Made by a program: the position numbers and the translations under genes
The notes under the pieces: generated by a model
What the model was told of the DNA's origin: nothing
Databases searched by the model: none
Seen by the model: the letters and a program-made list of their open reading frames with translations, nothing else
DNA from: a bacterium
GTDB lineage: Bacteria > UBA10199 > 2-02-FULL-44-16 > JAAZCA01
Assembly (NCBI GenBank): GCA_021810905.1
Contig: JAJZQH010000012.1
Span: forward strand, 72,001-136,000
DNA: 64,000 nt
Reading direction: 5' to 3'
In this document: positions 20,509 through 41,894 of the stretch, one piece after another
How positions within the stretch are numbered: the stretch's first letter is position 1
How the letters are laid out: every line of letters starts with the position of its first letter

Positions 20509-20571
20509 TGGCAATAGGAATAAAAATCCGACCGTCTTATCGACTGCCCCATGATAACAAACAAGCTGCGC

Positions 20572-20868: not shown

Positions 20869-20883
20869 TCTGACCCTCCATTC

Positions 20884-23800
20884 TCAAGCTGGTTTTTTCC
20901 ACTGACCCGAAGACAGGACGTTGCCTGAGGCATCGAGCTTTTCCCAATCATAGCTCATCAGGACGCCTGTGGAATCGTAGACAAAATTTCGATATCTCAT
21001 TTTATACAAGAGGATATCAAGGGCGCCGTAGTTCTCCCGATCGTACTGCGTCACTCGGTTCTTCTCGTCATAAAGATAGTTCGAGTTGCGATAGCCACCC
21101 GAGATGGCGCCAGCGGAATCGTAACTCGTATATCTGAGCACTGACGTATGTCCGGAGCTGTCGAACTCGTACTGATACAGATTCAAGAGCTGGCCGGCTG
21201 GACCGTAATTCGAGAGCTCATAGGAGTTCACCTTTCCTTCCGGCCCATAGGAATAATTGCGGACTTCGACCCTGCTGACAACATTCCCCGATGCGTCATA
21301 ATTCTCCCGATCGTACTGCGTTGTACGGTTTTTCTCATCGTAGAGATAGTTCGAGTATCGGTAGCCACCAGAGGGGTTGCCAGCCGAATCGTAACTCGTA
21401 AAGGTGATCGCTGACGTACGTCCGGAGCTATTGAACTCATACTGATACCGATTCAGGAGCTGACCGGCGGGCCCGTAATTCGAGAGCTCATAAGAGCTCA
21501 CCTTTCCTTCTGGCCCGTACGAATAATTGCGGACCTCGCTCTTGCTGACGAGATTGCCCGAGGCGTCGAAATTCTCCCGATCGTATTGCGTTGCCCGGTT
21601 TTTCTCATCATAGAGATAGTTCGAATACCGATAACCGCCGGTGCTGTTGCCTGCGGCATCGTAAGTCGTCAATCTCATGGATGACACGCGTCCGGAGCTG
21701 TCGAACTCGTACTGATACAGATTCAAAAGCTGGCCGGCGGACCCGTAATTCGAGAGCTCATAAGAGCTCACCTTTCCTTCTGGCCCGTACGAATAATTGC
21801 GGACCTCGCTCTTGCTGACGAGATTGCCCGAGCCGTCGAAATTCTCTCGATCGTATTGCGTTGCCCGGTTTTTCTCATCGTAGAGATAGTTCGAGTAACG
21901 ATAACCGCCGGTGCTATTGCCTGCGGAATCATACGTCGTATACCCGAGCACCGTCCTGCGCCCCGCGTCGTCAAACTCGTACTCATACCGATTCACGAGA
22001 TTGCCGTCGGAACCGAAGTTCGAAAGCTCATAGGAGCTCACCTTGCCCTGCGGCCCATAGGTGTAGTTGCGGACTTCGACCCGAGCGGTAAGACTGTCGG
22101 AAGCGTCGAAATCATCCCGGTCGTACTGCAACGTGCGGCCCTGGTCGTCATAAAGATAATTGGAGTACAGACGCCGTGAGGTCTGAAGTCCGTTTGCATC
22201 GTAAGAGACCGCTTCGTTCGTGAGCACGGCTCCCTTCTCGTTGAAGGTGTACGTTGTCCTGGTCACCAGCTTGTTGTTCGCATCGTAATCATACCGCACA
22301 TAGCCCTGCGTCTTGCCGCTGCTGTAATACTGATAGTCGCGATACTCGAAGCGCCGAACGAGATTTCCGGCAGCGTCATAATCCGCGCGATCATACTGCA
22401 TCACGCGGCCCAGCTCGTCATACGCATAATTCGAATACTCATAGGACTGCGTTACAGCGCCGTTCGAATCATACGTCGTAGAGACGTTTCCGGTGACCTT
22501 TCCCTTCTCGTTGTACGTATATTCGAGCTGTCGCTGCAGCGCACCGGAGCCGTTGTAGTCGCGCCTCTTGTATCCTGAGACGACGCCATTTGCGTAATAA
22601 GTGTAATCGAAATATTCATACTTGATGGTGACGTTCCCCGCGCCGTCGGAGATCGTCAGCCAGTACCCAGTGTACCTGTTGGAATCGGCATACGTGAACT
22701 GCTCGTAGCTGTACGTTGAAGTCACGTTTCCCGAAGCGCCATAGTTCGTGAGCGTATATCCCAGACTCCTGCCCTTCTCGTCGTAGGTATAATCGTCGTA
22801 GACAATGGAACGCGTTATGTTGCCACCTGCATCGTAGTAGACGACCTTGTAGTAGATAGTGCGGCCGCTCGCGTCTTTGAGCCTGACGTTCGAATCTGAG
22901 TTATCGCCGACTCCATCCTTGTCGGCATCCTGTGATTCATTCGGATCGAGCGGGAAGGCATCGGAGCTATCCGGCACACCGTCATCGTCGTCGTCATCGT
23001 CTTCGTTGTTGCCGATGCCATCCTTGTCCGTATCGAGATACTCGGAAGGATCGAGCGGAAAGGCGTCGACGCCGTCAAGATGGCCGTCGAGATCGGTGTC
23101 GGCCACGTTCGGTTTCGTTCCATACGCGATCTCGTCGCGGTTGTTCATTCCATCGGCATCGAGGTCGGCATCGCCATCAAGATAAGTGATGACCACGTCA
23201 CCATTGGATGTTGCACCCGCGCCATTCGCGACGCTCACTTGATACGCCCCGGCAGCAAGCCTCGGCAGATTGCCTTCTATATAGGTACTGTCCGCAACAA
23301 GGCTGTTTTGCAGCATCTGCCCGCCGATAGTCACAACGGCATCCGAGGTGAATCCGGATCCGAAGACGGTTACAACCCTGTTGTCCTCATTGGCCAGTGC
23401 GTAATCGTTCTGGAGATGCGAAACATGCGGGACGCTGCCGCTCGCGACCACGCTTACATCAACGAGGTTCGTGAGCAGACGCGACGGGTAGATCATGAGG
23501 CGCAGCTGATAATGTCCCTCTGGAACAGCCGTCTTGAGCTGGGCGACGAGCTCGGTATCCGACCAGGACGTATAATTGAACGGCCGATAAAGTCCCACGC
23601 CCAGGATGAGATCAATCGTGCCTGGCAAAGATTCTCCCATATTCCCAAATCCCCTGCCCCTGATCGTGACAGTCTCGCCAGGGGTAAGAACGCGCGGAGA
23701 TATCGAGTCGATCTTCGGAGAGAGGCCGGCATACTGATCGGCATTCGCGCTCCTGCCCGAGGGTTCCGGCTGATAGATGCTCTCATTATTGGTGACGGAC

Positions 23801-26800
23801 ATCGGGTATGCTCCGGCAAGCTCGTCCAGCATAACCGTTGCTATAGTAGTACTGTCGACGGGCTGACCGAGGAACACGATATTCTCAATGCTCGATGTGT
23901 CTTTATTCGGCGAAGAGATGCCCAGATCAAAGTATCCAGAGCCCTTGCCGATCATGTCGATGCGATAATCGCTCCCCACGCCCGCATTGGCGATGGAGAC
24001 GACTTCCACCTCCTCGGAGCCGCCCTTGAGGACGTGATAGTCCACCTCCGGGATATCGTCGTTGAAGGTCCCGAACGGTCCAACGCCCGAACGCCTGCCC
24101 GATGCATCCGTGACCAGTGAGTCCACAGGGCAAGCGAGTTCGACGACCGTATGATTCGTCTCGGTCGGAGTCAGATAGTCAGCATAATAGACCGGAATGA
24201 ACGCTGAGTAGCTCTGTATGGTAGCTCCCTGTCCCTTAATGACCTTGCTCAACATCTGCTTGCTCTCATTGAGATCTCCGCCGCTTGCGGCATTGAGATT
24301 CACGTTGCGATGCAGGCTCAGGTGGAGATGATTTGGCCAAGTCTTCAATCCTCCGGTTCCACCGACCTGACCGATCTTCTCTCCGACCTCAACGTATTTT
24401 CCGATAGCCGGTTGCGGATTGTCTTTGTCCCAGGCCTGCAGATGCGCGTATCGGAGAGTAAAGTTCGAATCGATATCGGACTGAATGATGACCTCATTGC
24501 CAAAACCGTCGTATGCCCCGCTGAACACCACGACGCCAGAAAAGCCGGCCAGCGCATCCGAGCCAGCATCGGCGTCGTCGGCTACGTTCCAATCCAGCGA
24601 GTCAAAGTCTCCTTTGACGTGATACTGGCTCACGCAATTCTTTGGATATTTTTTCATGAGACAATACAGGTGATCCGTCTTGGCCTGCGAGCTGTCCCAG
24701 GTGAATCCATCGTCTCCACTGCACGGTTCGCCGTCGGCATCTGAAGACTCGCCATTCGCGCACTTCCCCTCGACCGTGTACCATTCGAGATCGGTCTGCA
24801 TCGGCGAGAAGATCCTCGTGTTGGAACCCGTTGGATCCAACTTGAAGTTGGCCGGATAACCCGCTATCTGGCCGTTGTTATAGCGAAGCCTGAGGTCGAT
24901 CTTCGTCGTCTGCTCTATATTGCTTCCGTTCAACCCGACGTACCATTTGCCTGCCTTGGCATTGTAAATCGTAACGGATTCGAGCGAGCCCTCGAGGTAT
25001 GGCGCAACGAGCACCGGATTTGTTTCGTCCAGTTCCGGGTCCTTGTCGGTCGCCGTCACCAGATCGGCGAGTTTCTTGACGTCATCCTGCGTGACCTCCG
25101 AACCCTGTTTCAGATAGAGATCGACGTCTGTTTTCTTCGAATTTTTTCCGACCCCGGCTATCTGCACGGTCAGCACGTCGACGTCCTCATTGAGCGTAAA
25201 GGAATAATTGAGCAGATCGTCCTGCTTGACCTCGATATCCCTGCAACCCTTGTTATTGCGCAATTCCTTTCTCGCGCAATAATCCCTGGCATCGCCGCTC
25301 ACGCCCGATTCTGAAATATCGAAGAATTTCGTCTCGGAATCCGCACTGCATACGATGAACGGCAGCACGGCAAAGACGCAGGCATTGAGCTTGTATTCAT
25401 ACGATCCGTTCGCAAGCGACGCGACAGTTGCAGATGTTCCGCCAACCAGGGTCGACGTATCCCTGGCATCGCCGCTCTTTTTTGATTTGAGCATATAGAA
25501 TGTAGCGCCCTGACTCGCGTTCCAGGAAATAGTCACGGAGTTACCCGAGACCGTATGGTTCATACCGGTCACCACGGCGGGTTTGTTGCTCTCCGCGGCT
25601 ATTGAAAAACCGACCTTGTCTGACGAAAGGCCGTCATTGCTATTGAGGACGACTCGAACTTCATATGACCCGGGCGCAAAAAGATGCGTCCAGCTCAGCG
25701 TATTGTCGGCCGTTGACATGGGACCGATCGAATCGGAGTAATTCCAGGTCGGCGATGAATATTCTTTCCACGCCACGATATATCCCTGGATGTGTTGATC
25801 CACCGGATTCTGCTGCCACCGCACCGTCACATTGCGCCCTTCCGACTGCGCGACTCCTATCTGGCATACGACTCCAGCAACCTTCGTCAATGGCGATGAA
25901 CTGCTTCCGGTCGAGGACTCGCACAGGCCGTTGCTGACGTCGCTCGTAATATCGGCGTAAACGTCACCGCCTGTCCATTTATGGATTTTACCTCCTGCAT
26001 CGACGAGATCCGCGAGATAGTACGGCGTGTTGTTATTGTCATAGATGATGGTTGGGAATGTCGAGATATCCTGCGGCGATGAAATATCGCTTATCTTGGT
26101 CATATACGGATCGACGGAGGTATTGGTATAGAGGTCTCCCGATATATAATCATAAATGTCGCCCACGTACCCGTAGGCGCCATCCGAACCGCCCGTGCCG
26201 TTATACCAGGCGATCGGATAGTACCAGTTCTCGACAATCCTCTTGTCGAGATCGCATTCGGAGGTGACCCCGGCGATATTGGTGGCCCAGCGGTCGTTTA
26301 ATTTTTCCACGGCCTTTTCAATGTTGGTCTTCCAGCTCCCCGAGACCGCCTGCGCACGCGTGGCGTCAGAGAATTCGATGTTGTCCCTGTCCGAGACGTC
26401 ACCGCTGACGGGAATTGTGATCTGCATGATCCCGATTCCGATGCTCTTGATGCTCGAGCAGGTGGCGTCGGTGTCGTAGCCGTACTTCGCATCGCCTTTG
26501 GCATAGGCAAAATCAAAAGTGCCGCCGCAGTAAGTCTGAGAGCCATCGGCGTCCCAATATTGACGCCAGCCGGATTCCTTAAAGGCGATTGCCTTGAGGA
26601 TGACAGGCGGAATATCATGAATCGCGGCGATATTCAGGATCTCGTCGCTGATCTCTTTGTAGGTCGGGTTGTCGGTGTCAACCGTCTGTATGCCATCGGG
26701 CGGAGTGGTCGGATTATTGACTGAAATCATCGCCCATATTTTGCTGGTAGACCATGAATTGTCCGCTGCGCGAATTTGAATGATTTCATTGGCAGGTCCG

Positions 26801-29640: not shown

Positions 29641-29837
29641 AGCTCCCCCCAAGGTTGTCTCAAGGTTCGATTTGAATAAGATGAATGAATTTATTGCTGG
29701 AAGGGTGATTGAACTGATGTGTATCGACGGGATCTGAAATAATCCGACGAATCATGCCGCGGACAGGGGCACAATTAACGCAGCATGTCAACCTTTATTT
29801 CACCTGACGGCGCCCGGCGCCTTTTTGTAGGGCTTAT

Positions 29838-30683
29838 TCATCGCTCTCCCTGTTTTTCCGTAAAAAGTTCCAGGGAATCCACCTGCCAGACATAGAAGCT
29901 CTGCTCAGTTGCGCCATCGGAGAGCACAATTCTTATATGCCCGTCGTAGAGATCGAAATGCGAATCAAAGGTCTCGTGCGCCTCGGCGATGCGTCCCGTC
30001 ATATGATATCGAGCGCCGGTATCTTCGTCATGCCATCGTACGCGCATCTGCAGGCCGTCCCGCTGCCACTCGCGAAACCGCGCGAGCGCAAGCATGTTGA
30101 TCTCTTTGGGACCGGCGTAGTGCACCTCGATGCGACGGCTCTTTGCCGCGATCTTCTCCGCAAACGTCGCAAGGGGCCAGCCCTCGCGCTTTCCCACGGC
30201 CCTCACCCACGCGTCGTAGGCGCCGCTTTGCATCGAGATGAGAATTTTCGAGATGTGGTTCTCCGACTTCCACACCCTCAGCTCTGATCTGAAGGCTCCG
30301 ATGCCCTCGAAGATGGCCCGCACCGCGGCCTCGTGGCCGAGCAGGCAGAGCCCGTCTCCGTATGCGATGGAGACGGAATCGTTTCCCGGTTTGTTGGCCG
30401 ACCAGAGCGCGCCCCTGACCTCATCGCCCAGGTGCAGATTCAGCGGACCGCCAAGCCGCGACATCCTCGGCGCCTCATCGAGATCAGATGCAACCGAGAT
30501 CATCTCCGAGACGAGGCCCATCACCACCCCCTGCTCGCCGTCGAGGAGCGGTATCTGCTGGTTCGCCGCAGCGGTCCCCCCGTCATCGCCGATGACGGAC
30601 ACGTCGAGCGACGAATCGTCCGCGGATTCATAAACAAAAGTTGAATGCGATATGCTTGACGTTTCGATTGCCGACACAATCAC
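29838..30683 (-). CDS. Orphan protein, third gene of the 31418 operon
   Basis: This protein of about 281 residues is unrecognised. The GTG at 30683 overlaps the stop codon of the preceding gene (GTGA) and has GGAGG upstream, so the two are translationally coupled; a second GTG lies six bases on. The N-terminus is polar and acidic (YESADDSSLDVSVIGDDGG). The rest is a mixed alpha/beta sequence ending YVWQVDSLELFTEKQGER. No signal peptide, membrane helix or catalytic motif is evident. As the last gene after the pseudokinase-like gene it may be its partner, but no function can be assigned. Confidence 0.6.
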   Translation of the reverse strand: MIVSAIETSSISHSTFVYESADDSSLDVSVIGDDGGTAAANQQIPLLDGEQGVVMGLVSEMISVASDLDEAPRMSRLGGPLNLHLGDEVRGALWSANKPGNDSVSIAYGDGLCLLGHEAAVRAIFEGIGAFRSELRVWKSENHISKILISMQSGAYDAWVRAVGKREGWPLATFAEKIAAKSRRIEVHYAGPKEINMLALARFREWQRDGLQMRVRWHDEDTGARYHMTGRIAEAHETFDSHFDLYDGHIRIVLSDGATEQSFYVWQVDSLELFTEKQGER

Positions 30684-31381
30684 CCGAGCCTCCCCAGCAA
30701 CGCCTGTTTTATTCGCAGGGCCAGGTCTTCCTCCCACATCAAGCTGCTGTTGGAAACGACGGGACGTGCTCCGCCGAGCTGCGAAACGAGGATCGTCCGA
30801 TCCCGCGTGATGCGATCATAGTGCGCCAGCGTCACCGTCAACTTGAGATGAGCGTCAGCGTTTCCAAATGTGAAGGGGCATGTGCCGGAAATGACGGACC
30901 CTTTCCCGATCCATTGATCGCGGAATTGATCCTCACCTGTTTTGACGAAGCGTCCCCCGACACTCCCCTCGTGAAAGCGGAGCGATCCAACAAAACCTTC
31001 GTAGCTCTGAAATACTCCGATGCCCGGACTGCCGCAGTAAGGATTGCCATGGGCGAGCACGGACTCGACAAAGGCCCTCGCGTCTATGATCACATGAGCG
31101 AAGGCAGCCTCGAGCGCGCCGAAGACCGGGGCAAAATCCATAGCGAAATGCCCGTGACCGATCTGCGGCGCCTCCCATGTGATGCAGGTTTCAAGGTGCG
31201 CCCTCTCAAGCCTCGCATCCGCAAGCTCGCCAGGATTTTCATGAGCAAATCCATCGATCGCGATCTCATCGAGGTCCGCTTCGCCATCGGTGGAGCAGGA
31301 ATCTTCTTCTCCGGCAACGCCCGTAATCGGAGACGTGGTATACGACGTGACGTTTATGATCAAACCGGGCTGAGACATCAT
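30680..31381 (-). CDS. Orphan protein, second gene of the 31418 operon
   Basis: This 233-residue protein is unrecognised. The ATG at 31381 has CGGAGG five bases upstream; the next codon is also ATG. It begins MMSQPGLIINVTSYTTSPIT, followed by an acidic stretch (GEEDSCSTDGEADLDEIAID). The middle is mixed, with HGHFAMDFAPVFGALEAAF. It starts 36 bp after the pseudokinase-like gene and its stop overlaps the next start. The gap holds no complete sigma-28-like motif, so it probably depends on the promoter at 32762. Confidence 0.6.
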   Translation of the reverse strand: MMSQPGLIINVTSYTTSPITGVAGEEDSCSTDGEADLDEIAIDGFAHENPGELADARLERAHLETCITWEAPQIGHGHFAMDFAPVFGALEAAFAHVIIDARAFVESVLAHGNPYCGSPGIGVFQSYEGFVGSLRFHEGSVGGRFVKTGEDQFRDQWIGKGSVISGTCPFTFGNADAHLKLTVTLAHYDRITRDRTILVSQLGGARPVVSNSSLMWEEDLALRIKQALLGRLG

Positions 31382-31417
31382 GTTCCTCCGTACGCTTATC
31401 CGGCGCTTACCATAAGC

Positions 31418-32728
31418 TCAGCGCAGGCTGGCAGCTATCAGACGCGCTACGTCTCTCACGGCGTGTTTCTCATGACCAGAGGCCCAGGACAAGAGAGGGA
31501 TACTCTCCGCACTCCCCTCGCGCAACGCGAAGATGAACTCCGGAAGACATAAAAGCCCAGATGTATCCGATCGTTCATGGCCGAAGTAACCTTTGCTGAA
31601 GTGGCCAACGAGATATGATGCGATTCTGGACGGGCGACGGAAGTCGCCATTCTCACAAAAACAGACGGCGATATCCCTGGCGATCTTGCCCAGGTCCAGG
31701 AGGACGTAACCGAACCTCTGTTCCGGCGTCATGCTGGACAACTCCTCGGCGGTTTCGAGGTCGCAGATCAAGACCCTGTGTCCGTGATTATAGAGCACGC
31801 TGAAATTCTCAAGATGCGGATATTTGTGTACCAGACCTCGCTGATGCATTGAAAAGATTGCGCGTCCCATCCCCTCAAAGATCGCCGCGAGCGTCCCGGA
31901 CCGATCTTCTTCCGATATTCCCCACCTGAGGCATCTTATGGATGTCTGCAAATACCCGCTGAAGACCCTCATTTCGTTTCGAACCCTTGATCCATATATA
32001 ATGAACCCGATTTTTTCCTCAGACTGCGCGCCGAAGCGCAGGCCTCTATAATATCCGTAGCAAATCACTGCATCAGTCAGTCGAAACCCGAGCCTTTTGG
32101 CTGCCGCTATTTCTCGCAACAGATCCCTCTCGCCGCACGCCCCCTCAGGAGCGAACGTGGGGATGTCAAGATACGCCTCTCCGCCGGCGGAGATCTCCAT
32201 CGGATACTGAACGCACCCACGCCCAAGATGTGGCATCAACACCATGTCTGAATTCAATCGAGGAGATATGCCTTTACAGCGAAGCCTAACTATCTCCTCT
32301 CCATCGTGCTTGAATGTTTTGGAGAGAAGGAAATCGGTACTGCGTCCCCTGATGATTCCTGTTGAGGTTATGATGCGATGCAATCTTTGCCGATCGCATG
32401 CGCTCAGCTGATTATAAAGTGGAGTAAACTGAACGAAAACAGTTCTGCGGTTTATCGCACTAAATACGTATGAATCGACGGGCCTGCCGCACATCGTTTG
32501 TCCCTGCGTAATCTCGGCAAAAGAATCCCCGATCTCGTTCGAACTCTTTCCAGGATTTCTTACGACGCCGATATTCGATGCATCCTGTTCTTCACAGGTT
32601 AACGCTGCCTCCGCAGGAATTTCGGCTGCCTCATCAACAGGCGCGCCCGCGTCCTGCGCCGCGCGCATGAGCGGATCGGAAAGAACAGCAGTCATAAATC
32701 CTGACGAACCGAGTAACACTGACATCAT
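31418..32728 (-). CDS. Protein-kinase-like fold with degenerate catalytic loop
   Basis: The 436-residue protein has a kinase-like C-terminal lobe. The segment MHQRGLVHKYPHLENFSVL near residue 308 aligns with the HxDxxxxN catalytic loop of protein kinases and aminoglycoside phosphotransferases, but the catalytic Asp is Tyr (HKYPHLEN). ICDLETAEEL about 15 residues later matches the metal-binding DFG-type motif and keeps its Asp. No glycine-rich loop is obvious in the N-terminal half. It could be a pseudokinase or a kinase with an altered mechanism. The N-terminus (GSSGFMTAVLSDPLMRAAQD) resembles that of other orphans here. The ribosome-binding site is TGGAG, with tandem ATGs. It is the first of three genes. 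Confidence 0.6.
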   Translation of the reverse strand: MMSVLLGSSGFMTAVLSDPLMRAAQDAGAPVDEAAEIPAEAALTCEEQDASNIGVVRNPGKSSNEIGDSFAEITQGQTMCGRPVDSYVFSAINRRTVFVQFTPLYNQLSACDRQRLHRIITSTGIIRGRSTDFLLSKTFKHDGEEIVRLRCKGISPRLNSDMVLMPHLGRGCVQYPMEISAGGEAYLDIPTFAPEGACGERDLLREIAAAKRLGFRLTDAVICYGYYRGLRFGAQSEEKIGFIIYGSRVRNEMRVFSGYLQTSIRCLRWGISEEDRSGTLAAIFEGMGRAIFSMHQRGLVHKYPHLENFSVLYNHGHRVLICDLETAEELSSMTPEQRFGYVLLDLGKIARDIAVCFCENGDFRRPSRIASYLVGHFSKGYFGHERSDTSGLLCLPEFIFALREGSAESIPLLSWASGHEKHAVRDVARLIAASLR

Positions 32729-32761
32729 CGATCTCCAGAGAGTGGTTCGCTCAACGCCTCT

Positions 32762-32788
32762 TTATCGTATAGAACCAGGGAAAGTTGC
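32762..32788 (-). promoter_or_regulatory. Sigma-28-like promoter motif
   Basis: On the minus strand GCAACTTT, 11 bases, then TACGATAA lie about 34 bases before the start at 32728. It is back-to-back with the similar motif at 32845. Confidence 0.6.
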
Positions 32789-32844
32789 TAAAATTCAACG
32801 GGTCTGGCACATTTGTATTGAGCAGCAACAAATCAAAAAAACAA

Positions 32845-32871
32845 GCAACTCCCGCGGAAAGCGGCCGATAA
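32845..32871 (+). promoter_or_regulatory. Sigma-28-like promoter motif
   Basis: GCAACTCC, 11 bases, then a perfect GCCGATAA lie about 26 bases before the ATG at 32897. A TATAAT overlaps just downstream and could be a sigma-70 -10 element. Confidence 0.65.
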
Positions 32872-32896
32872 TTATAATGAACCAAAGGAAACCTCG

Positions 32897-33445
32897 ATGA
32901 CAGCGCCGGTATGTGATGCAGGCATGGCAAAGCGCAAGGCAATCCCGGACGTGGACGGGGACGGCCTGGCCGACGAACTCGTCACCTTCGACGGTTCCCG
33001 AATAATTGACACGATCGGGCCGGATTGTTTTTACAGGCTCATTGGCCAGGATTCCTATTGCCCTGCCGATGGATATTCCAATGATGACGGAATGAAATTC
33101 CTCAAGCTCACGAGCGGAAAGACGCTCTCGCAGCTGACAAGCCTTACAGATGACCACGGCCGCACGTTCAGCCGGGGGCAAAAAGTGGCCTTACACTATG
33201 TAGGCTATCCGTCGATAAACGGAGTCATAGAAAGATTCTCCGACAGTTTCATATCCATCGATGAGGGGACGCTCTTCATGACTGGCTTCGAAGCAGACGT
33301 GAAGCTGGATGATGGAACGATCGAAAAAAATATTCCGCTGGAACTGATCGCACACAATGACGCAGTGTCTCGAATGGAACGTGGGCTTACGGAACTCTAC
33401 TGGGACTGGCGTTTAAAGGCTGAAAATTTCCTGTACAATCTGTAA
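32897..33445 (+). CDS. Orphan protein with EF-hand-like DxDGDG motif (paralogue 1)
   Basis: This 182-residue protein is a clear paralogue of the one at 37598. Both begin with about 15 residues and then PDVDGDGLADEL or PDLDGDGLPEQL, a calcium-binding loop of EF-hand or dockerin type. Both continue with GQDSYCPA or GEDSYCPA, LTSGKT or LSSGKT, and KLDDG, and end in RGLTELYW or RGLSEFYW. A RASP-type beta core is possible, but I cannot name a family. There is no signal peptide. It converges on the gene at 33495, and the same pair arrangement is seen at 37598-38340, so the two-gene module has been duplicated. Confidence 0.7.
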   Translation: MTAPVCDAGMAKRKAIPDVDGDGLADELVTFDGSRIIDTIGPDCFYRLIGQDSYCPADGYSNDDGMKFLKLTSGKTLSQLTSLTDDHGRTFSRGQKVALHYVGYPSINGVIERFSDSFISIDEGTLFMTGFEADVKLDDGTIEKNIPLELIAHNDAVSRMERGLTELYWDWRLKAENFLYNL

Positions 33446-33494
33446 TCGAAAGGTGCCGGGCACCGGAGGTTCAAGGAAACGCTGAACTGCCCGC

Positions 33495-34442
33495 CTATTT
33501 CTCTTCATGCAAGTCATCCGAGCCATGCGGTCTATTCGGGTCGAGATCGATCTCGAGCAGGCGTAGCTGACTCTCAGGGATCTTCCAGCCGACGGGACGC
33601 TCATAGAGCGCAAGTTCGGTTTTCTTCCCGTCACCATCCTCGAGCACGTAGATCTCCAGGAACTGCCCGTTTGCAATCCCCTCCGGCACGGATATGCCGG
33701 AATTCTCAAACACGGCCCGATCCATTAGGCAGTTATAGAGCTTAGTCTCGTCTTTATCCCGCACGCCGTACAGGATGACGACCTCCTGTTCACCAATATC
33801 CTCTATTTTTCCCGGATGCCATGCGAGTAGCGCAGGGTTTCCGATCAAATCCTTGCGAAGATGTGGCCCAATCCAGCACTCATCGAATGGAACGCTAAGT
33901 GGGAAGACGCATCCCCCCAATCGTTCAGCCTCTTCCATGTGCTGCAATTCGCTCCAGAGTTGATTCAACTCGATGTTGTTGGAGAGTCCCTGTGGCTGGA
34001 TCGCCTCCAGGACCTCACGAGCCTCCGAGTGCGCGCCGTTGTCGAGGAAGGCACGCGCCACGCCTTCGTGCAGGCTGTATGCACCCTGAGCATCCACCCT
34101 TGCAGTCGCAGCGCGCCATTGGTGCATCCCATCCGCATGCATGCCGCGCGCAAGCAGGGCCTGTATATACCGAAGCGCACAGGCCGCACTGGCGGGCTCT
34201 GTTTCCGCGGCACGGGCGAGCCGGTCCAGCTCCTGCGCAGGAGACTCCGCCGCGTTCAAGCCTTCCACGGTCGAGGCGTTTTCATAGCGATCAGCAGGAG
34301 CCGGAATGGTGCAGCCATCAGCCTCGGCAGCGGACGGTTCGTCAGCGAGCAGATCGCCATCAGCCGCAGTATCCTCTTCATCGATCGATGCGAGAGCAGA
34401 ACCCATCACACCGAGCGGATTGCCATTGTTCACTGAGCTCAT
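33495..34442 (-). CDS. Orphan protein with helical-repeat-like region
   Basis: The 315-residue protein has a low-complexity acidic start (SIDEEDTAADGDLLADEPSA). A helical stretch follows, resembling tetratricopeptide-type repeats (ACALRYIQALLARGMHADGM, then AYSLHEGVARAFLDNGAHSE). The C-terminal domain ends LRLLEIDLDPNRPHGSDDLH. That last part reappears as a fragment at 38216-38340, next to the paralogous neighbour. It faces the EF-hand-like gene with a 49-bp gap. A sigma-28-like motif lies 60 bases upstream. The function is unknown; a protein-protein interaction role fits the helical repeats. Confidence 0.65.
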   Translation of the reverse strand: MSSVNNGNPLGVMGSALASIDEEDTAADGDLLADEPSAAEADGCTIPAPADRYENASTVEGLNAAESPAQELDRLARAAETEPASAACALRYIQALLARGMHADGMHQWRAATARVDAQGAYSLHEGVARAFLDNGAHSEAREVLEAIQPQGLSNNIELNQLWSELQHMEEAERLGGCVFPLSVPFDECWIGPHLRKDLIGNPALLAWHPGKIEDIGEQEVVILYGVRDKDETKLYNCLMDRAVFENSGISVPEGIANGQFLEIYVLEDGDGKKTELALYERPVGWKIPESQLRLLEIDLDPNRPHGSDDLHEEK

Positions 34443-34502
34443 ATGTCCTCCTTGAAAGTATGATGACCGGGAAACGCAACAAACACGTCACCCGTAGCAC
34501 TA

Positions 34503-34529
34503 TTTTCGGCACACTGTCCATAGAGTTGC
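34503..34529 (-). promoter_or_regulatory. Sigma-28-like promoter motif
   Basis: On the minus strand GCAACTCT, 11 bases, then GCCGAAAA lie about 60 bases before the ATG at 34442. Confidence 0.55.
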
Positions 34530-34572
34530 GCGGTTTTTTGCCCGATTGAATTCACGACAGACGGATCCATGC

Positions 34573-34660
34573 GTGCCTGGCACCGTCGCACGGGTACGGG
34601 CGCAGAGCCTCCATCCAATGTTCAGCGTCTATATCAAAATGGTACGCCGGTGCCAGGCAC
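34573..34660. repeat. REP-like pair upstream of RAYT copy 2
   Basis: Perfect units GTGCCTGGCAC (34573-34583) and GTGCCAGGCAC (34650-34660) lie about 65 bp apart, the typical layout of REP doublets, 120 bp before the second RAYT gene. Confidence 0.8.
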
Positions 34661-34747
34661 GCAGGCACGCTGCCGAAAATACTACAGTGCTGCACAGAAA
34701 CGCAGCAGCCTGGTCATTGCTCTCCTTGATATTTAAGGAGATTTTTC

Positions 34748-34763
34748 TGGCCCGCTTCTTGCT
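34748..34763 (+). promoter_or_regulatory. Possible sigma-54-type promoter
   Basis: TGGCCCGCTTCTTGCT has the GG and GC dinucleotides ten bases apart, as in -24/-12 promoters. It ends 14 bases before the RAYT start. Chance occurrence cannot be excluded. Confidence 0.3.
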
Positions 34764-34777
34764 TATGCTATCAGCGC

Positions 34778-35428
34778 ATGGGCAGACCCTTTCGTATATT
34801 GCAAAATGAGTATCCCTACCACGTCACCACCAGGACCAATGGCAGGGTCTTTGTCTTCAAGAAATGGACGTACAAGCTCATCATCAAGGTCCTGGTCGAA
34901 GTCACGAAACGCTTTGACGTACAAATTCACCACTTCAAGATGATGACCAATCACTATCACCTTACGCTCAAGACTCCATCAGCCAACATCAGCGAGATAC
35001 TGTGGTTTATCAACAACCAGATCGCTAAGCGATATAACCGGAGGATGGGGGTCACAGGACATCTGTGGGGAGAGCGGTTCCATTCGACGATCATCGAGAA
35101 TGCCCTGCATGCGCTGAGGTGCGTGATTTATCTCTATACGAACGGGGTGAGAGCGGGAATGTGCAGCCGTGCGTCGGAGGATGAGCAACTGAGCACGTTT
35201 GAGTTTTATGCGCGTGGGAAGAAGGTGGAGTTTATTGTAACTGAGGACGACGTGTATTTGATGTTGGGCAATAATCGGAAGGAACGGCAGGAGGCGTTTG
35301 TGCAGATGGTGGATCAGCCGATGGATGATGAGGAGATCAAGGCGATCCGCAGCGGTCTTCGGAAGTTGTTTTACGGGTCAGCGGATTTCGTCGAACGAAT
35401 GAAGGCGAGGTATGTGAGCAGGGCATAG
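34778..35428 (+). CDS. REP-associated tyrosine transposase (RAYT), copy 2
   Basis: This 216-residue paralogue of the gene at 6247 keeps the HUH motif (TNHYHLTLKT near residue 53) and the tyrosine in NNQIAKRYNRRMG near residue 80. GHLWGERFHSTII follows. The C-terminal part (ASEDEQLSTFEFYARGKKVE) is almost identical to copy 1, so both are young or under shared constraint. REP doublets precede and a REP unit follows it (35644). RAYTs are thought to mobilise or maintain REP sequences rather than move themselves. It lies between the two copies of a duplicated gene pair. Confidence 0.9.
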   Translation: MGRPFRILQNEYPYHVTTRTNGRVFVFKKWTYKLIIKVLVEVTKRFDVQIHHFKMMTNHYHLTLKTPSANISEILWFINNQIAKRYNRRMGVTGHLWGERFHSTIIENALHALRCVIYLYTNGVRAGMCSRASEDEQLSTFEFYARGKKVEFIVTEDDVYLMLGNNRKERQEAFVQMVDQPMDDEEIKAIRSGLRKLFYGSADFVERMKARYVSRA

Positions 35429-35643
35429 AGAAGAGCGAGTTTCAATTATATCCGGCCATGTAGAGGTCTGTCCGACGCCACGAATCACGCGAAGAAAATC
35501 ACTTCAGTGAACAATCTTACAATGCGATGACAGCTCGCAGCGTACCAGGCTGACTGATCGATCGCCCTGAGGACGAAAAAGCGTCTCCCAGGATGCAGGG
35601 GGAAAACGCCATCGTGTCGGTCAAAGCCATACCGAGAACAATC

Positions 35644-35654
35644 GTGCCTGGCAC
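35644..35654. repeat. Single REP-like unit
   Basis: A perfect GTGCCTGGCAC lies 34 bases before the promoter motif of the methyltransferase-like gene. Confidence 0.7.
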
Positions 35655-35687
35655 TATTATCGTGACACTACGTGGCCCGAATATCCC

Positions 35688-35714
35688 GCAACTTTTTTTC
35701 ATTCCTGCCGATAA
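35688..35714 (+). promoter_or_regulatory. Sigma-28-like promoter motif
   Basis: GCAACTTT at 35688-35695, 11 bases, then a perfect GCCGATAA at 35707-35714, about 48 bases before the ATG at 35763. This is the best match in the window to the shared consensus. Confidence 0.7.
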
Positions 35715-35762
35715 TGATAGGGTGCAGCTGAAGAGAGGCAAACGCACAACGCTGAGTATCTT

Positions 35763-37064
35763 ATGACGATCGAACCGGTCACTTTCGGAACTCTCTCCCC
35801 GACTGCCGCTCTGGCGCTGGATGATGGCGCAACAGGGGAAACGATCGGGCCTGCTGACGACGCCTCCATGTCCGCCTCCGATCCGGCGGCTTCATCGGGT
35901 GATGGGGCCGCCGCGATGGAATTCCCGCCGTGGATTCAGGAAAACACCGAACTGAGAGATAAGATGGTTCGAGGGTTCTCCCTCGCCCGGGATCACTTTA
36001 CGGCGGATCAGCTCGCGGTTGCCAGAAAATACGATCTCCTCGGAATCTATCGGCATCTCTATCATGGCAGAGGTGCCGACGAACTCGTTCCGCGGCTGCA
36101 TTACGACACCGCGCAGATCATGGTTTATCAAGGTATCGCAATGAGATGTGCGGCGCGCAGCGTTCTGTCGATTGGAGCGGGGAGGTGGTACGAGAACCTG
36201 GGGATGAGGCTCGCGCTCGCGGGCCTCTCGAGGGCGATCGGATTCGATTTCGTGAGTTGGAAGGTGAATGACGCGAGGGTCAATCTGGAGGAGTTCAGAC
36301 GTGCACTTGGAGACGATCCCGAAGGATCGATACATCAGGTCCACGAAGGCGACGGACGCCGTATGATGCAGCCGGGATTTGTCGAAGGGCTTGCGGATGA
36401 CGAATCTTCCCTTGAGACCTTTGATCTGGTGACGTGGGTCCATCCCTACACGAAGCAATGGGTCATGGGTGAGGATGAGGACCAAACCACCAATCGCACG
36501 GACCTTACCAGGATGCACGAACTCCTGCGGGGAGCCGCAGGGCGGATTTCCGAAAACGGCTCCATGCTCATCGTCTTCGATGAGAATACGTGGAACCCCG
36601 AACGCTATGCAGCGCTCTTCCAGATGATGAGGTGCGCGGGTTTTGATCAGCGATTCGGCCTGCCGACCCTCTATGGGGAAGTCGGCTTTAAGAATCCTCT
36701 TGGAGATTGGCTGGAGTTCGACATGCCTTTTGGCATGAGTGCATTGGGTAACCGCGACATCATTTTCAGTGGCGGTAAAGAGGCGCTCGAAACCTTTGAG
36801 CGGATGCTCACCAATCTGCGAAAGATTGGAAAACGGCTTGAATTCAGCGATGAAGCGACTCTCTTCTTTCTCGTTTCCAAGTGCGCGCAGGGCGAGCGCA
36901 ACCTGTTGCTCGAGGCGCTGGCACTCGAAGGCGCGAATGCCCAGGAGGGCCTTTCCGAACTCATCTGGAGGAACTCGACGCGCGCCGGAGGTTCAGCGGA
37001 ATTCGTGGGGCCGCTTGCGGCATTTCTCGAGAATCGACACGGTCCTAACCCCGATCGTTCGTGA
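35763..37064 (+). CDS. Methyltransferase-fold orphan protein
   Basis: The 433-residue protein has a class I SAM-methyltransferase-like core. ARSVLSIGAGRWYENLGM near residue 131 resembles motif I. AIGFDFVSWKVND follows with an acidic residue after strand 2. ETFDLVTWVHPY near residue 218 resembles motif IV. The first 50 residues are low-complexity and acidic (ALDDGATGETIGPADDASMS). No signal peptide is seen. The gene stands alone in the accessory island, with only a weak ribosome-binding site. The substrate is unknown, and the methyltransferase assignment rests on the fold-like motifs only. Confidence 0.6.
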   Translation: MTIEPVTFGTLSPTAALALDDGATGETIGPADDASMSASDPAASSGDGAAAMEFPPWIQENTELRDKMVRGFSLARDHFTADQLAVARKYDLLGIYRHLYHGRGADELVPRLHYDTAQIMVYQGIAMRCAARSVLSIGAGRWYENLGMRLALAGLSRAIGFDFVSWKVNDARVNLEEFRRALGDDPEGSIHQVHEGDGRRMMQPGFVEGLADDESSLETFDLVTWVHPYTKQWVMGEDEDQTTNRTDLTRMHELLRGAAGRISENGSMLIVFDENTWNPERYAALFQMMRCAGFDQRFGLPTLYGEVGFKNPLGDWLEFDMPFGMSALGNRDIIFSGGKEALETFERMLTNLRKIGKRLEFSDEATLFFLVSKCAQGERNLLLEALALEGANAQEGLSELIWRNSTRAGGSAEFVGPLAAFLENRHGPNPDRS

Positions 37065-37110
37065 ACAAACTCCGTTGAGACGAGAGACACGTCTCCAGGG
37101 GGCATCACGC

Positions 37111-37441
37111 GTGCCTGGCACCTTTATCCCTTTTATCCCTTTAAAAATGTGTCGGCCGGTAAATGCACGGACGACAGCATCCGCTGCATTTTCTTCCACG
37201 ATCGTATCTGTTTCGAGTGTATTGCTGGATGGGAAGCCCGGCATGACGTGATCACGCGATCATCATGCCTGGCACTGCAATCCCACGTCTTCACCCTATC
37301 CATGATTGTGACGCATCGTCAAGAGAGACTTCTTTCCGGCAAGATTCTAAAAAGACCTGTCCCCTGCAACGTGCGTCTCTGAAAAACGTGCCTGACATAT
37401 CGTGCCTGTACCGTCGCGTCCGGAACGTTCGTGCCTGGCAC
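37111..37441. repeat. REP-like cluster
   Basis: Units occur at 37111-37121, 37265-37275 (ATGCCTGGCAC) and 37431-37441, with degenerate copies near 37388 and 37402. The interval 37065-37597 holds no gene that I can support apart from these repeats and the next promoter motif. Confidence 0.75.
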
Positions 37442-37547
37442 CGCCCCGGCACTGAGGTCAGGTTCTTCTCATGCGCGAATCTGAGACGTCTATCAGCAGG
37501 GGCTGAAAATACTTGCGAGCATTCTTCACATGAGGGAAAGATATCAC

Positions 37548-37574
37548 GCAACTCTGCGGAAGAACGGACGAGAA
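37548..37574 (+). promoter_or_regulatory. Sigma-28-like promoter motif, weak
   Basis: GCAACTCT, 11 bases, then GACGAGAA (six of eight -10 positions) lie about 23 bases before the ATG at 37598. It is in the same relative position as at the paralogue 32897. Confidence 0.45.
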
Positions 37575-37597
37575 TAAGCCGGGGGCACGGAGGAAAG

Positions 37598-38173
37598 ATG
37601 GCGAATCCGAGATGCGATGCAATCAAACTGGAGCCCAGGGAGGTGCCGGACCTGGATGGCGACGGACTGCCGGAGCAACTTTTCATCTATCAAGTTCCGC
37701 AGACCGCAGCCCATTCGTTCGACGTGGACTGTTTCAAGTACAAGGTCATGGGTGAGGATTCCTATTGCCCGGCAGAATCGCTGACAACCCTTCTTGATGA
37801 TGATGGTTTCCCCTCTCTGCTCTCCTTCCTCAGGCTTTCAAGCGGAAAGACGTTCGAGCAGATGAAAGAGGCCGCCGACGCCGACGGCCGAAAATTTCAC
37901 GTCGGACAAAGTGTGGCGTATTGGAACTTCTTCTTCAGGTCGCCGTTGACGGGTGTCATCGATCAGTTCCACGCCGACGTCATGGCTCAGCCAGACGGTA
38001 CGGTCAAGTCAGACTTCCATGCAGACATGAAACTGGATGACGGAAGAGTAGTGATGTGGGTTCCCCTGAAAGATCTCACGCCCAATGACACGTGGTCGCA
38101 GATGAAACGAGGGCTCAGCGAATTCTATTGGGGTGCGCGCGGCAAGATCGATATCTTCCTCGTCAACCACTGA
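37598..38173 (+). CDS. Orphan protein with EF-hand-like DxDGDG motif (paralogue 2)
   Basis: This 191-residue paralogue of the protein at 32897 shares the PDLDGDG loop, GEDSYCPAE, LSSGKT, KLDDGRV and the end RGLSEFYW. The ATG at 37598 follows CGGAGGAAAG and aligns with the paralogue's start; the longer open frame upstream is not used. Immediately downstream, in convergent orientation, lies a remnant of the gene that faces paralogue 1. The conserved loop suggests calcium binding, which is inference. Confidence 0.7.
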   Translation: MANPRCDAIKLEPREVPDLDGDGLPEQLFIYQVPQTAAHSFDVDCFKYKVMGEDSYCPAESLTTLLDDDGFPSLLSFLRLSSGKTFEQMKEAADADGRKFHVGQSVAYWNFFFRSPLTGVIDQFHADVMAQPDGTVKSDFHADMKLDDGRVVMWVPLKDLTPNDTWSQMKRGLSEFYWGARGKIDIFLVNH

Positions 38174-38215
38174 ATCGACTATCGCCTGCAGCGTTCAGAT
38201 CGGCAATCACGTCGC

Positions 38216-38340
38216 CTATTTCACTCCTTTCGAGCCAGGCAGTCTCGCCGGATCGAGCTCGAGCAGGCGAACCATGTGCTCGGGGAACTTCATGGGCACG
38301 GGAGGTTCATGGAGGGCGACTTCACCACCGTGCCCGGCAC
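38216..38340 (-). pseudogene. C-terminal remnant of a 33495-type gene
   Basis: The minus strand reads GGEVALHEPPVPMKFPEHMV then RLLELDPARLPGSKGVK and a stop. This aligns with KTELALYERPVGWKIPESQL then RLLEIDLDPNRPHG at the C-terminus of the 33495 protein. Similarity ends at a REP-like GTGCCCGGCAC (38330-38340), and the rest of the gene is missing. The gap to the neighbouring paralogue is 42 bp, against 49 bp in the intact pair. Confidence 0.75.
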
Positions 38341-38408
38341 CGTCGCGTTGCACACCCCCTCGCCTGGCTCCTTGACTCACTCCCTTCAAACCCCTAGAAC
38401 GCCCAACA

Positions 38409-41400
38409 ATGGCAGCCGGGATTAGCGACATCATCGAGGCGATCAAGGGCGCGCATGGCCCTGTAGCCGTGGACGGGCTGCACGGTTGTGCACGTGGGCT
38501 TTTGCTTGCGTGCCTGGCACGCGCGATGCGCGGGTCCGCGATCCTCGCTATCACCTCCACCGAGGAGCGCGCGCAGGAGCTGGTGGACGACTGCGCGCTC
38601 TTTCTCCACCCCGACGACCGCCCCCGACTCGCTCTCTTTCCCGAAAGCTCCGTGCTCCCTTTCTCGCGCCTCTCTCCGGAACCCGAGGACTGGGCGGACC
38701 GCATCCGCGCGCTCTACGAACTCGCGCACAGCCGCCCCCTCATCGTCGTCGCGTCGGTCGCGGCGGCCATGCGCCGGCTCCCGCCCATGTCGTTCATCGC
38801 AAACGGCGGCCGCACCATCCATAAGAAGGAATCCATCGATCCGCAGGAGCTCTGTTCGTGGCTCTCAGATTACGGCTACGAAGACGTGGGGCTCGTAGAG
38901 GACGAAGGATCGTACGCCCGCCGCGGCGGCATCGTGGACCTCTGGCCGCCGACCGCGGAACTACCGGTGCGCATAGAGCTGGAGGACGACCGTATCGTCT
39001 CCATGCGCGCCTTTGACCCTGCCAACCAGCGCTCGCGCCACGATGTAAACGAAGTGCTGCTCATACCCGTGCGCGACCTCCCGTTCGACTCGGCATCGCG
39101 CGCAAAGGCCGCACACAGGATCCGCGAGCGTTCGGACGAATCTAACCTCACGGCGCACGAGCGCCGGGCGATCATCGAGGCGATACACGAAGGCATCGCG
39201 GTCTCGGGCATCGAGACGCTCATGCCGCTCTTCCACGACTCCACCTCCACCCTCTTCGACTACCTCTCTTCCGACGCGCTCGCGTTCGTCGACGAGGCGA
39301 CCGATGCGGAGGCCGCCGCAAACGTGCACGAAAAGGAAGTTGCGGAGATGTATCGCGACACGCAGAGCCCCGAGCGCGTGGTGAAGCCGGAAGAGATCGT
39401 TATGCCGCCCGCGGAGCTGTGGGACGGGCTCAGCCGCATGCGCGGTGCGCGGCTCAATGCCCTGCCTCTTGAAGGAGATCAGACTCCGTCGATCAGAGCC
39501 GCCACGCAGAGCAACGCGGATCTGCACGTCTTGCTCAAACCGCAGGCAAAGGGCGAGGACATCCTCAACCCGCTCATCGATCTCATCCGAAGGCTTTTGG
39601 AATCAAACTCGCGCGTCTGCCTCAACTGCCACACGGAAGTGCAGGCTTTGAGGCTCACGGATCTCTTCCACACGCACGGGCTGGAGGTGGTAAAGTTCGA
39701 CGCGCCGTTTGAAACGCTCTCAGAGATGAAAGGCGCTGCGCTGCGCCTCATCATGGGCCGCCTCTCCGCCGGCTTCCGCTGGGAGGCTGAGAAGCTCGCC
39801 GTGATAACGGACGCTGAGATCTTCGGCGGCAAAGCTCCGCGCAAGGCCCCTCCCGCCCGCCCAATGGAGCCGTTCACCTCGTTCGCCGAACTCGCCGATG
39901 GAGACTTTCTCGTGCACGAGCTGCACGGCATAGGCCGCTATCGCGGGCTCGCGCACCTCGCTATCGACGGGAATGCCGGCGATTTTCTGCTCCTCGAATA
40001 CCTGGGAGGCGACAAGCTCTATCTCCCGGTCTATCGCATGAACCTCGTGGGCCGCTACATAGGCTCGAGCGACGCACCTCCGTTCATCGACAAGCTCGGC
40101 GGAACGCGCTGGGCAGCCGTGCAGAAGAAGGCGACGCAGGCGATAAGGATTCTCGCCAAGGAGTTGATCGAGATCTACGCCGCGCGCGAGGTCTATCCCG
40201 GAGTTCCGATACCCGACGCTGGAGCCGCGTACGAGGAGTTCGCCGCGGCATTCCCTTACGATGAGACTCCGGATCAGGAGCGCTCGATAGACGACGTGAT
40301 GCGCGATCTCGCGAGCGAACGGCCGATGGACAGGCTCATCTGCGGCGACGTGGGCTACGGAAAGACCGAGGTGGCGATGCGCGCCGCGTTCCGCGCGGCC
40401 CTCGCGGGTCAACAGGTAGCCGTGCTCGTGCCCACGACGGTGCTCGCGTTCCAGCACTACGAATCGTTCAACAGGCGCTTTGCCGGGCAGCCAATAGAAA
40501 TAGAGATGATCTCGCGCTTTCGGAGCGGCTCGCAGCAGAAGGATATTATCGAGCGGCTCAAGAAGGGGGGCGTCGACATCGTCATCGGCACGCACAGGCT
40601 GTTGCAAAAGGACATCGCGTTCAAAAACCTGGGGCTGCTCATCATCGACGAGGAGCACCGATTCGGTGTCAGGCACAAGGAGCGGATCAAGAAGTTGCGC
40701 ACGCAAGTGCACGTCATCGCCATGTCGGCGACCCCGATCCCGCGCACTCTCAACATGTCGCTATCCGGCATCCGGGACATCAGCATCATCAACACACCGC
40801 CAGCAAACCGCCAGAGCATCGCAACGTACGTGGCGCCGTTCGACGAGGGCGTGGTGCGGCAGGCGATCCTGCGCGAGATAGCGCGCGGCGGCCAGGTCTT
40901 CTTCGTGCACAACCGGGTGGAGACGATCGAATCGATGCGCTCTCGGCTCGCGCGCGCGGTGCCGGAGGCGCGCATCGTCGTGGGCCACGGCCAGCTCCAC
41001 GAACACGAACTCGAGCGCGTGATGATGGAGTTTCTGGAAAAGCGCGCGGACATCCTTTTGTGCACCACCATCATCGAGTCGGGGCTCGACATACCGAACG
41101 CGAACACGATCATCATCAACCGCGCAGATACGTTCGGGCTCGCGCAGCTCTATCAGCTGCGCGGCCGCGTAGGGCGATCGAACGTGCGCGCGTCTGCGTA
41201 TCTGCTCACTCCGCCGGACGGAGAGATGACGCCTCTTGCGAAGAAGAGGCTCACGGTGCTCAAGCGCTTCACCGAACTCGGTTCAGGCTTCCAGATAGCT
41301 ATGCACGATCTGGAGTTCCGCGGCTCAGGCAGCATCCTGGGCAGCGCGCAGTCCGGCCACATCGCCGCGCTCGGTTACGAGCTCTACACGAAGCTGCTCG

Positions 41401-41894
41401 ACAGGGCCGTCAGAAAGCTCACTGGCAAGAAGGTCGAGGAGGAAATCGACCCGGAGCTCAACCTCAAGGTCGCGGCCTTTCTGCCGGAAACCTACATATC
41501 CGACCCTGGAACGCGCATCGATATCTACAAGAGGCTCTCATCCCGCGACTCCTCCGAGGAAATCGAAGCCCTTGGGGAGGAGCTCGCGGACAGATTCGGC
41601 CCTCTCCCCGCGGAGGCCGAAAATCTGCTGGGCGTAATGGAGGTAAAGATCCTGGCGCGCAGGCTCCGCATGCGCCAGGTGCTCTTTGACGGCTCCGTTC
41701 TCTCCTGCCAGCTCGACGCAAGCACCCCGCTCTCGACTGAGGCGATCCTCTCCCTGGCCGCAAAAGAACCCGGCCGCTTCCGCATCGTCCCCCCCGATCG
41801 CCTGATCATCAAGGCCCCGGCCCCCGCTGGCGGCGCGGCCGCGATTCTGGCCGCCAAAAACTCCTTGAGTGCGCTCTCCGCGTGTGTTAGCTGA
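38409..41894 (+). CDS. mfd: Transcription-repair coupling factor
   Basis: Mfd removes RNA polymerase stalled at DNA lesions and recruits UvrA. The 1161-residue product has the UvrB-homology domain (SYARRGGIVDLWPP), the RNA-polymerase-interacting domain beginning GDFLVHELHGIGRYRGL near residue 500, and the helicase core. Core motifs are GDVGYGKTEVAMRAA, IIDEEHRFGVRHKE, MSATPIPRTLNMSL and QLRGRVGRSN. The length is normal. The downstream gene starts 25 bp after the stop. A GTGCCTGGCAC at 38510 lies in the coding sequence as CLARA. mfd and uvrA (49280) act in the same repair pathway. Confidence 0.98.
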   Translation: MAAGISDIIEAIKGAHGPVAVDGLHGCARGLLLACLARAMRGSAILAITSTEERAQELVDDCALFLHPDDRPRLALFPESSVLPFSRLSPEPEDWADRIRALYELAHSRPLIVVASVAAAMRRLPPMSFIANGGRTIHKKESIDPQELCSWLSDYGYEDVGLVEDEGSYARRGGIVDLWPPTAELPVRIELEDDRIVSMRAFDPANQRSRHDVNEVLLIPVRDLPFDSASRAKAAHRIRERSDESNLTAHERRAIIEAIHEGIAVSGIETLMPLFHDSTSTLFDYLSSDALAFVDEATDAEAAANVHEKEVAEMYRDTQSPERVVKPEEIVMPPAELWDGLSRMRGARLNALPLEGDQTPSIRAATQSNADLHVLLKPQAKGEDILNPLIDLIRRLLESNSRVCLNCHTEVQALRLTDLFHTHGLEVVKFDAPFETLSEMKGAALRLIMGRLSAGFRWEAEKLAVITDAEIFGGKAPRKAPPARPMEPFTSFAELADGDFLVHELHGIGRYRGLAHLAIDGNAGDFLLLEYLGGDKLYLPVYRMNLVGRYIGSSDAPPFIDKLGGTRWAAVQKKATQAIRILAKELIEIYAAREVYPGVPIPDAGAAYEEFAAAFPYDETPDQERSIDDVMRDLASERPMDRLICGDVGYGKTEVAMRAAFRAALAGQQVAVLVPTTVLAFQHYESFNRRFAGQPIEIEMISRFRSGSQQKDIIERLKKGGVDIVIGTHRLLQKDIAFKNLGLLIIDEEHRFGVRHKERIKKLRTQVHVIAMSATPIPRTLNMSLSGIRDISIINTPPANRQSIATYVAPFDEGVVRQAILREIARGGQVFFVHNRVETIESMRSRLARAVPEARIVVGHGQLHEHELERVMMEFLEKRADILLCTTIIESGLDIPNANTIIINRADTFGLAQLYQLRGRVGRSNVRASAYLLTPPDGEMTPLAKKRLTVLKRFTELGSGFQIAMHDLEFRGSGSILGSAQSGHIAALGYELYTKLLDRAVRKLTGKKVEEEIDPELNLKVAAFLPETYISDPGTRIDIYKRLSSRDSSEEIEALGEELADRFGPLPAEAENLLGVMEVKILARRLRMRQVLFDGSVLSCQLDASTPLSTEAILSLAAKEPGRFRIVPPDRLIIKAPAPAGGAAAILAAKNSLSALSACVS

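What the first reader, a model, noticed from the sequence alone, without database searches (positions are those of the whole stretch)
32897..38340. Duplicated convergent gene pair, with one partner reduced to a fragment cut at a REP unit
The EF-hand-like genes at 32897 and 37598 are paralogues, and each faces a convergent gene. At the second copy only the last 35 or so codons of the partner remain (38216-38330), and similarity stops at GTGCCCGGCAC. This suggests a REP-associated deletion. Conservation of the pair layout implies the two proteins work together, perhaps as effector and partner or toxin and immunity.
Basis: partly seen in the sequence, partly recalled or inferred. Interest (0 to 1): 0.6.

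Follow-up and report, generated by a model that had tools for sequence, protein, structure and literature searches.

The report
Decayed duplicate of an orphan gene pair
In an 18-kb stretch of DNA that this bacterium has gained next to a conserved DNA-repair gene, two neighbouring genes of unknown family were copied long ago and one of the two copies later lost almost all of one gene; this is ordinary gene duplication and decay in a repeat-rich region, and nothing found shows that the two proteins work together.

Summary
The sequence observation is mostly right. Genes A (32897-33445) and B (37598-38173) are clear paralogues (41% identity). The 3' tail of C (33495-34442, minus strand), which converges on A, recurs behind B (38216 to about 38330-38353): alignment score 75, best of 5000 shuffles 52. 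No further copy was found in this 2.98-Mb genome, in 45 other genomes of the phylum, or in the genome, viral, phage and plasmid collections scanned. Co-occurrence cannot be tested: one intact and one broken pair are the whole family.

Most informative context: a conserved gene (19106-20407) and mfd lie side by side in 12 relatives but 18 kb apart here, so everything discussed is lineage-specific DNA. It holds a RAYT-like transposase and seven of the genome's 52 GTGCCNGGCAC palindromes (0.09 expected). The fragment ends within about 100 bp of mfd, at the insert's edge.

Not supported: 'similarity stops at the REP' (the alignment runs through the palindrome, which overlies C's own codons 8/11 in register); 'EF-hand' (A/B model as a Tudor-like SH3 barrel behind a DxDGDG loop, low confidence); effector/partner or toxin/immunity (separate transcripts, B survives without a full partner, no family match).

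Verdict: ordinary duplication and decay of orphan genes.

The parts
20408..38408 (.). Lineage-specific insertion between p19106 and mfd (about 18 kb)
   Evidence: p19106 homologue and mfd are neighbours (usually within 1.5 kb, 2 kb in G007) in 12 other genomes of the phylum and 18,001 bp apart here; GC 0.549 against 0.577 and 0.589 on the two sides
32897..33445 (+). Gene A, 182 aa orphan; N-terminal DVDGDG loop, C-terminal Tudor-like SH3 barrel predicted
   Evidence: ORF; paralogue of B; model pLDDT 60 overall, 80s in parts of the barrel; Foldseek PWWP/Tudor, best E 0.02
33453..33463 (+). GTGCCGGGCAC palindrome between the convergent A and C stops; terminator-like on the minus strand
33495..34442 (-). 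Gene C, 315 aa orphan; disordered N-terminus, TPR-like helices 65-175, low-confidence C-terminal strands
   Evidence: ORF; weak TPR_19 E 0.0055; model; Foldseek TPR, best E 0.006, probability 1.00
34573..34660 (.). Inverted pair of REP palindromes upstream of the RAYT-like gene
34778..35428 (+). RAYT-like Y1 (HUH) transposase, NHYHL motif
   Evidence: PF01797 E 4e-11 above cut-off; NF047646 E 2e-15 but 57 bits, below its cut-off of 80
35644..35654 (+). REP palindrome
35763..37064 (+). Orphan 433 aa protein, methyltransferase-like by eye only; one paralogue elsewhere in the genome (58%)
37111..37121 (+). REP palindrome
37431..37441 (+). REP palindrome
37598..38173 (+). Gene B, 191 aa, paralogue of A
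38216..38353 (-). Remnant of a second copy of C: last 31-43 aligned codons plus stop
   Evidence: inner part 38216-38329 is firm, 38330-38353 marginal
38330..38340 (+). GTGCCCGGCAC palindrome at or near the break; followed by the same CGTCGC as the REP at 34573
38409..41894 (+). mfd (transcription-repair coupling factor), conserved right neighbour of the insert
   Evidence: 57-70% identity to mfd of three relatives of the same family
19106..20407 (-). p19106, conserved left neighbour of the insert
   Evidence: homologues in 37 of 46 genomes of the phylum, own included

Best explanation
An orphan convergent unit (A facing C) sits in an 18-kb lineage-specific insertion between two conserved genes (p19106 and mfd). 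The unit was duplicated within the insertion long ago; A and B have since drifted to 41% identity. The second copy of C later lost about its first 270 codons at the mfd-side edge of the insertion, leaving only its last 31-43 aligned codons and stop. The region is full of RAYT-type palindromes and carries a RAYT-like transposase, so recombination at such repeats is a plausible but unproven cause of the duplication and the loss. A and B are probably small binding proteins (calcium-type loop plus Tudor-like SH3 barrel) and C a TPR adaptor. That they act together is not shown. Shown: paralogy, fragment homology, insertion, REP density. Inferred: order of events, cause, protein roles.
For: Paralogy A/B. 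Fragment homology. p19106 and mfd neighbours in 12 relatives, 18 kb apart here. No A, B or C relative in the other 45 genomes of the phylum. Seven palindromes in 33446-38408 against 0.09 expected, all intergenic. RAYT-like gene inside. The fragment keeps about 72% DNA identity to C (26 differences in 93 positions) while A and B keep about 58% (224 in 540); this suggests C' stayed a gene for some time after the duplication and was lost later. Folds.
Against: Only one genome of this genus is held, so neither the intact second pair nor the deletion event can be seen directly. The fragment shows no third-position excess (9/8/9 differences over 31 codons), so past selection on it cannot be demonstrated. 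A conserved tail of C would also explain its higher identity. The A model rests on two sequences and one of five models.
Confidence: 0.6

Rival explanations
1. Partial duplication: the copied segment contained all of A but only the last part of C from the start. No second full C ever existed and nothing was deleted.
For: One event instead of two. Fragment length (31-43 codons) and the 42-bp B-to-fragment spacing, close to the 49-bp A-to-C spacing, fit a single copied block.
Against: A never-functional tail should have decayed more than A/B, yet it is better conserved (about 72% against 58% DNA identity), in frame and with its stop in place.
Confidence: 0.27
2. REP-associated deletion, as the first reader proposed (a specific cause for the loss in the best explanation, not exclusive with it): the second C was cut by recombination or RAYT cleavage at the palindrome at 38330.
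For: The palindrome lies at the break; the region has about 80 times the expected density of such palindromes; the 17-mer there matches the REP upstream of the RAYT-like gene with one mismatch; REP clusters are known recombination hot spots (PMC11708052).
Against: The alignment runs through the palindrome to 38353; C itself has 8 of the 11 bases at the homologous codons; the C/G-centred core is rare, 4 of 42. Deletion between two REPs would need one inside the C reading frame.
Confidence: 0.3
3. The two proteins are a functional pair (effector and partner, or toxin and immunity) and the layout is conserved for that reason.
For: The two genes are adjacent in one intact and one decayed instance; folds typical of binding modules; type III secretion/flagellar-type genes exist in the genome.
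Against: n=2 from a single duplication, so not independent; convergent genes; B persists with only a stub of C'; no TA, immunity, defence or effector family match; no other genome to test co-occurrence.
Confidence: 0.12
4. The fragment's resemblance to C is chance.
For: It is short (31 aligned residues).
Against: Score 75 against a maximum of 52 in 5000 shuffles and 42 for the best unrelated frame; same orientation, same position relative to the paralogue, matching stop.
Confidence: 0.02

Closest known systems
REP/RAYT systems (REPtrons)
   Same: Short palindromes in many intergenic copies; a Y1/HUH transposase gene with inverted palindromes beside it.
   Different: Few copies (52); no GTAG tag next to the palindrome; RAYT score below NCBIfam's cut-off. 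The exact 11-mer was not found as a described REP in the papers searched.
REP-mediated tandem duplication (Shyamala et al. 1990, cited in PMC11708052)
   Same: Duplicated block in a REP-rich region.
   Different: Old, diverged, non-tandem copies; REP at the join not demonstrated.
Tudor/PWWP-type SH3-like barrels
   Same: Predicted barrel of A superposes on the PHF19 Tudor domain over 64 columns at 1.7-2.0 A.
   Different: Foldseek E not below 0.001; no sequence match; low-confidence model; host is a bacterium.
TPR adaptor proteins
   Same: Predicted helical hairpins 65-175 of C match TPR structures.
   Different: Sequence match to TPR models below curated cut-offs; C-terminal part unassigned.

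Membership tests
   No EF-hand family at E<=1 in Pfam or NCBIfam; the DxDGDGL loop lacks the hydrophobic residue usual at position 8 and the acidic residue at 12 (sequence)
Toxin-immunity or toxin-antitoxin pair | Recurrent co-occurrence of both genes across genomes | tested here: inconclusive
   Neither family found in any other genome
Toxin-immunity or toxin-antitoxin pair | Co-transcribed, both partners retained | tested here: not met
   Genes converge; B is intact with only a stub of its partner
Toxin-immunity or toxin-antitoxin pair | Toxicity of one protein, rescue by the other | not testable with these tools
   Needs expression experiments
REPtron (RAYT plus cognate REPs) | HUH/Y1 transposase gene of the RAYT type | tested here: inconclusive
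   PF01797 met; NF047646 E 2e-15 but below cut-off
REPtron (RAYT plus cognate REPs) | Intergenic palindromes, many copies, flanking the RAYT gene in inverted orientation | tested here: met
   52 copies against 3 control; 34573+/34650- and 35644+ around the gene; also around the second RAYT at 6247-6924
REPtron (RAYT plus cognate REPs) | GTAG (or CGTC) tetranucleotide tag | tested here: not met
   No conserved tetranucleotide next to the core in 42 sites
Tudor/PWWP (SH3-like barrel) | Fold | tested here: inconclusive
   Foldseek probability up to 1.00 but E 0.02-0.5 on a low-confidence model

The most novel reading that the evidence does not exclude
The insert is an array of single orphan genes each bracketed by GTGCCNGGCAC palindromes and assembled or shuffled by the resident RAYT-like transposase, i.e. 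palindrome-bounded gene cassettes, of which the truncated C is one broken joint; A/B and C would be cargo, possibly secreted or binding proteins.
Probability: 0.07. Interest if true: 0.65.

Novelty: new member of a known kind. Interest (0 to 1): 0.24.

Why it matters
As found, it is a clean local example of how orphan genes are gained, duplicated and lost in a repeat-rich insertion beside a housekeeping gene. It would matter more if the palindromes could be shown to be the joints at which the genes were moved, since RAYTs are not, to my knowledge, known to move cargo genes. The orphan proteins themselves (Tudor-like barrel, TPR) are unexplored.

Tried and rejected
A/B as relatives of the conserved neighbour p19106: single pairwise BLAST looked suggestive (E 3e-4 for B), but the profile of 29 p19106 sequences gave hhalign probability 1.2% and no HMMER match; rejected. 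Shared N-terminal tag among the orphan proteins: pairwise shuffles not significant for C, the 31418 and the 35763 proteins. Weak phylum hits to A (G031, G038) and C (G024): a repetitive surface-type protein, and places without convincing coding similarity; not taken as relatives. PADLOC hits DrmMII and AbiEi (E 0.004-0.009) treated as noise: partial, and not shared by the paralogue. The palindrome at 38510 inside mfd is ordinary mfd coding sequence (ACLAR here, ASLAR in a relative). DNA comparison of the insert ends with relatives' p19106-mfd spacers found nothing, so the exact insertion points are not known.

Full report
What is there. Two forward genes, A (32897-33445, 182 aa) and B (37598-38173, 191 aa), are paralogues with 41% identity along their whole length (alignment score 322 against a shuffle maximum of 59). 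A faces C (33495-34442, minus, 315 aa). Behind B, on the minus strand, the last part of a second C remains: a stop codon at 38216-38218 preceded by 31 aligned codons that match the end of C (19 of 31 identical). The score of 75 was not approached by 5000 shuffles (maximum 52) nor by any other open frame in the window (next 42). tblastn finds it at E 1e-5 in the window and it is the only other C-like place in the 2.98-Mb genome.

Where the similarity ends. The local alignment does not stop there; it runs through the palindrome to 38353. Read on the minus strand the palindrome is GTGCCGGGCAC, and C has GTGACGGGAAG at exactly the homologous codons, 8 of 11 identical, which about 0.2% of random positions reach. 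A formal test of extension past the firm block is marginal (protein p=0.03, DNA p=0.25). Against that, the six bases after the palindrome equal those after the REP at 34573, as expected of a true REP copy, although its C/G centre is rare (4 of 42 sites). I conclude that the break lies somewhere in 38314-38360 and that a REP as its cause is possible, not shown.

Context. A conserved gene of the phylum, here at 19106-20407 (homologues in 37 of 46 genomes), is a close neighbour of mfd in 12 other genomes, usually within 1.5 kb; here 18,001 bp separate them. The 18 kb are therefore lineage-specific. GC is 0.549 against 0.577 and 0.589 on the two sides. The part 33446-38408 holds seven GTGCCNGGCAC palindromes (0.09 expected from the genome-wide rate of 52, itself 17 times the reversed-pattern control), all in intergenic DNA, and a RAYT-like HUH transposase (34778-35428). 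The truncated C lies at the mfd-side edge of this insert, its broken end about 50-95 bp from the mfd start.

Distribution. A, B and C have no relative in the other 45 genomes of the phylum. The A/B family was also not found in the GTDB species genomes scanned, viral contigs, phages (A) or plasmids (B); C was not found in plasmids or viral contigs. The GTDB and viral scans start from short conserved peptides and would miss remote relatives. Pfam, NCBIfam, PHROGs and PADLOC give nothing meaningful for A, B and C. Co-occurrence of the two families thus cannot be tested.

Protein models. A, folded with B as its only companion sequence, gave one usable model of five (pLDDT 60; 80s in some strands): a small barrel and a C-terminal helix. 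Foldseek's best matches are PWWP and Tudor domains, probability 1.00, target-normalised TM 0.71-0.78 to PHF19 Tudor, but E 0.02 or worse. I take 'SH3-like barrel' as a lead. The conserved DxDGDGL near the N-terminus resembles calcium loops in general, not a canonical EF-hand. C models as a disordered N-terminus, TPR-like helices (pLDDT about 80) and a low-confidence end; Foldseek agrees on TPR. The lost part of C' therefore includes the whole TPR region, and the stub can hardly have that function.

Order of events (inference). A and B differ at 224 of 540 aligned positions with a modest third-position excess (71/60/93); C and the stub differ at 26 of 93 (9/8/9). The stub being better preserved than the intact paralogues favours a full second pair that lost C' later, over a partial copy at the outset; the small number of codons keeps the second option alive.

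Working together? The two copies come from one duplication and are not independent evidence. Convergent genes do not share a transcript, B survives without a full partner, and no toxin, immunity or defence family is matched. The functional-pair reading is possible but unsupported.

Noticed in passing
window 6247-6924 (-), palindromes at 5982, 6005, 6036, 7044, 7105: A second RAYT-like gene, visibly similar to the one at 34778, also flanked by oppositely oriented GTGCCTGGCAC palindromes. The palindrome family lacks a GTAG tag; these two genes are the likely cognate RAYTs, since the two other RAYT-like genes of the genome (C9, C3) have none of the listed palindromes close by.
   Followed up: partly
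window 20884-29652 (-): 2922-aa protein with eight NBR1-type Ig-like domains, an M23 peptidase domain and a C-terminal YD-like repeat array, inside the same insert.
   Followed up: no
window 35763-37064 (+) and genome contig C12:23806-24969: Orphan methyltransferase-like protein with a single 58% paralogue elsewhere in the genome and none in 45 other genomes of the phylum.
   Followed up: partly
window 31418-32728 (-): Orphan 436-aa protein with a protein-kinase-like catalytic stretch by eye (HQRGLVHKYPHLENF...ICDLE); only weak Bud32 and LanKC matches.
   Followed up: no
window 1007-1966 (+) and 7331-8650 (+): Two proteins near palindromes with HExxH-type zinc-peptidase motifs; the first weakly matches Peptidase_Mx1. 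A palindrome at 1106 lies inside the first reading frame, adding VPGT.
   Followed up: no
L081 (genome contig C15:194000-213000): Type III secretion/flagellar-type genes: YscJ/FliF, FliG-like, EscN-type ATPase and a TPR protein that might be a chaperone, with palindromes nearby.
   Followed up: no
window 19106-20407 (-): Phylum-wide conserved protein of unknown function divergently adjacent to mfd in 12 genomes; its partnership with mfd is unexplored.
   Followed up: partly
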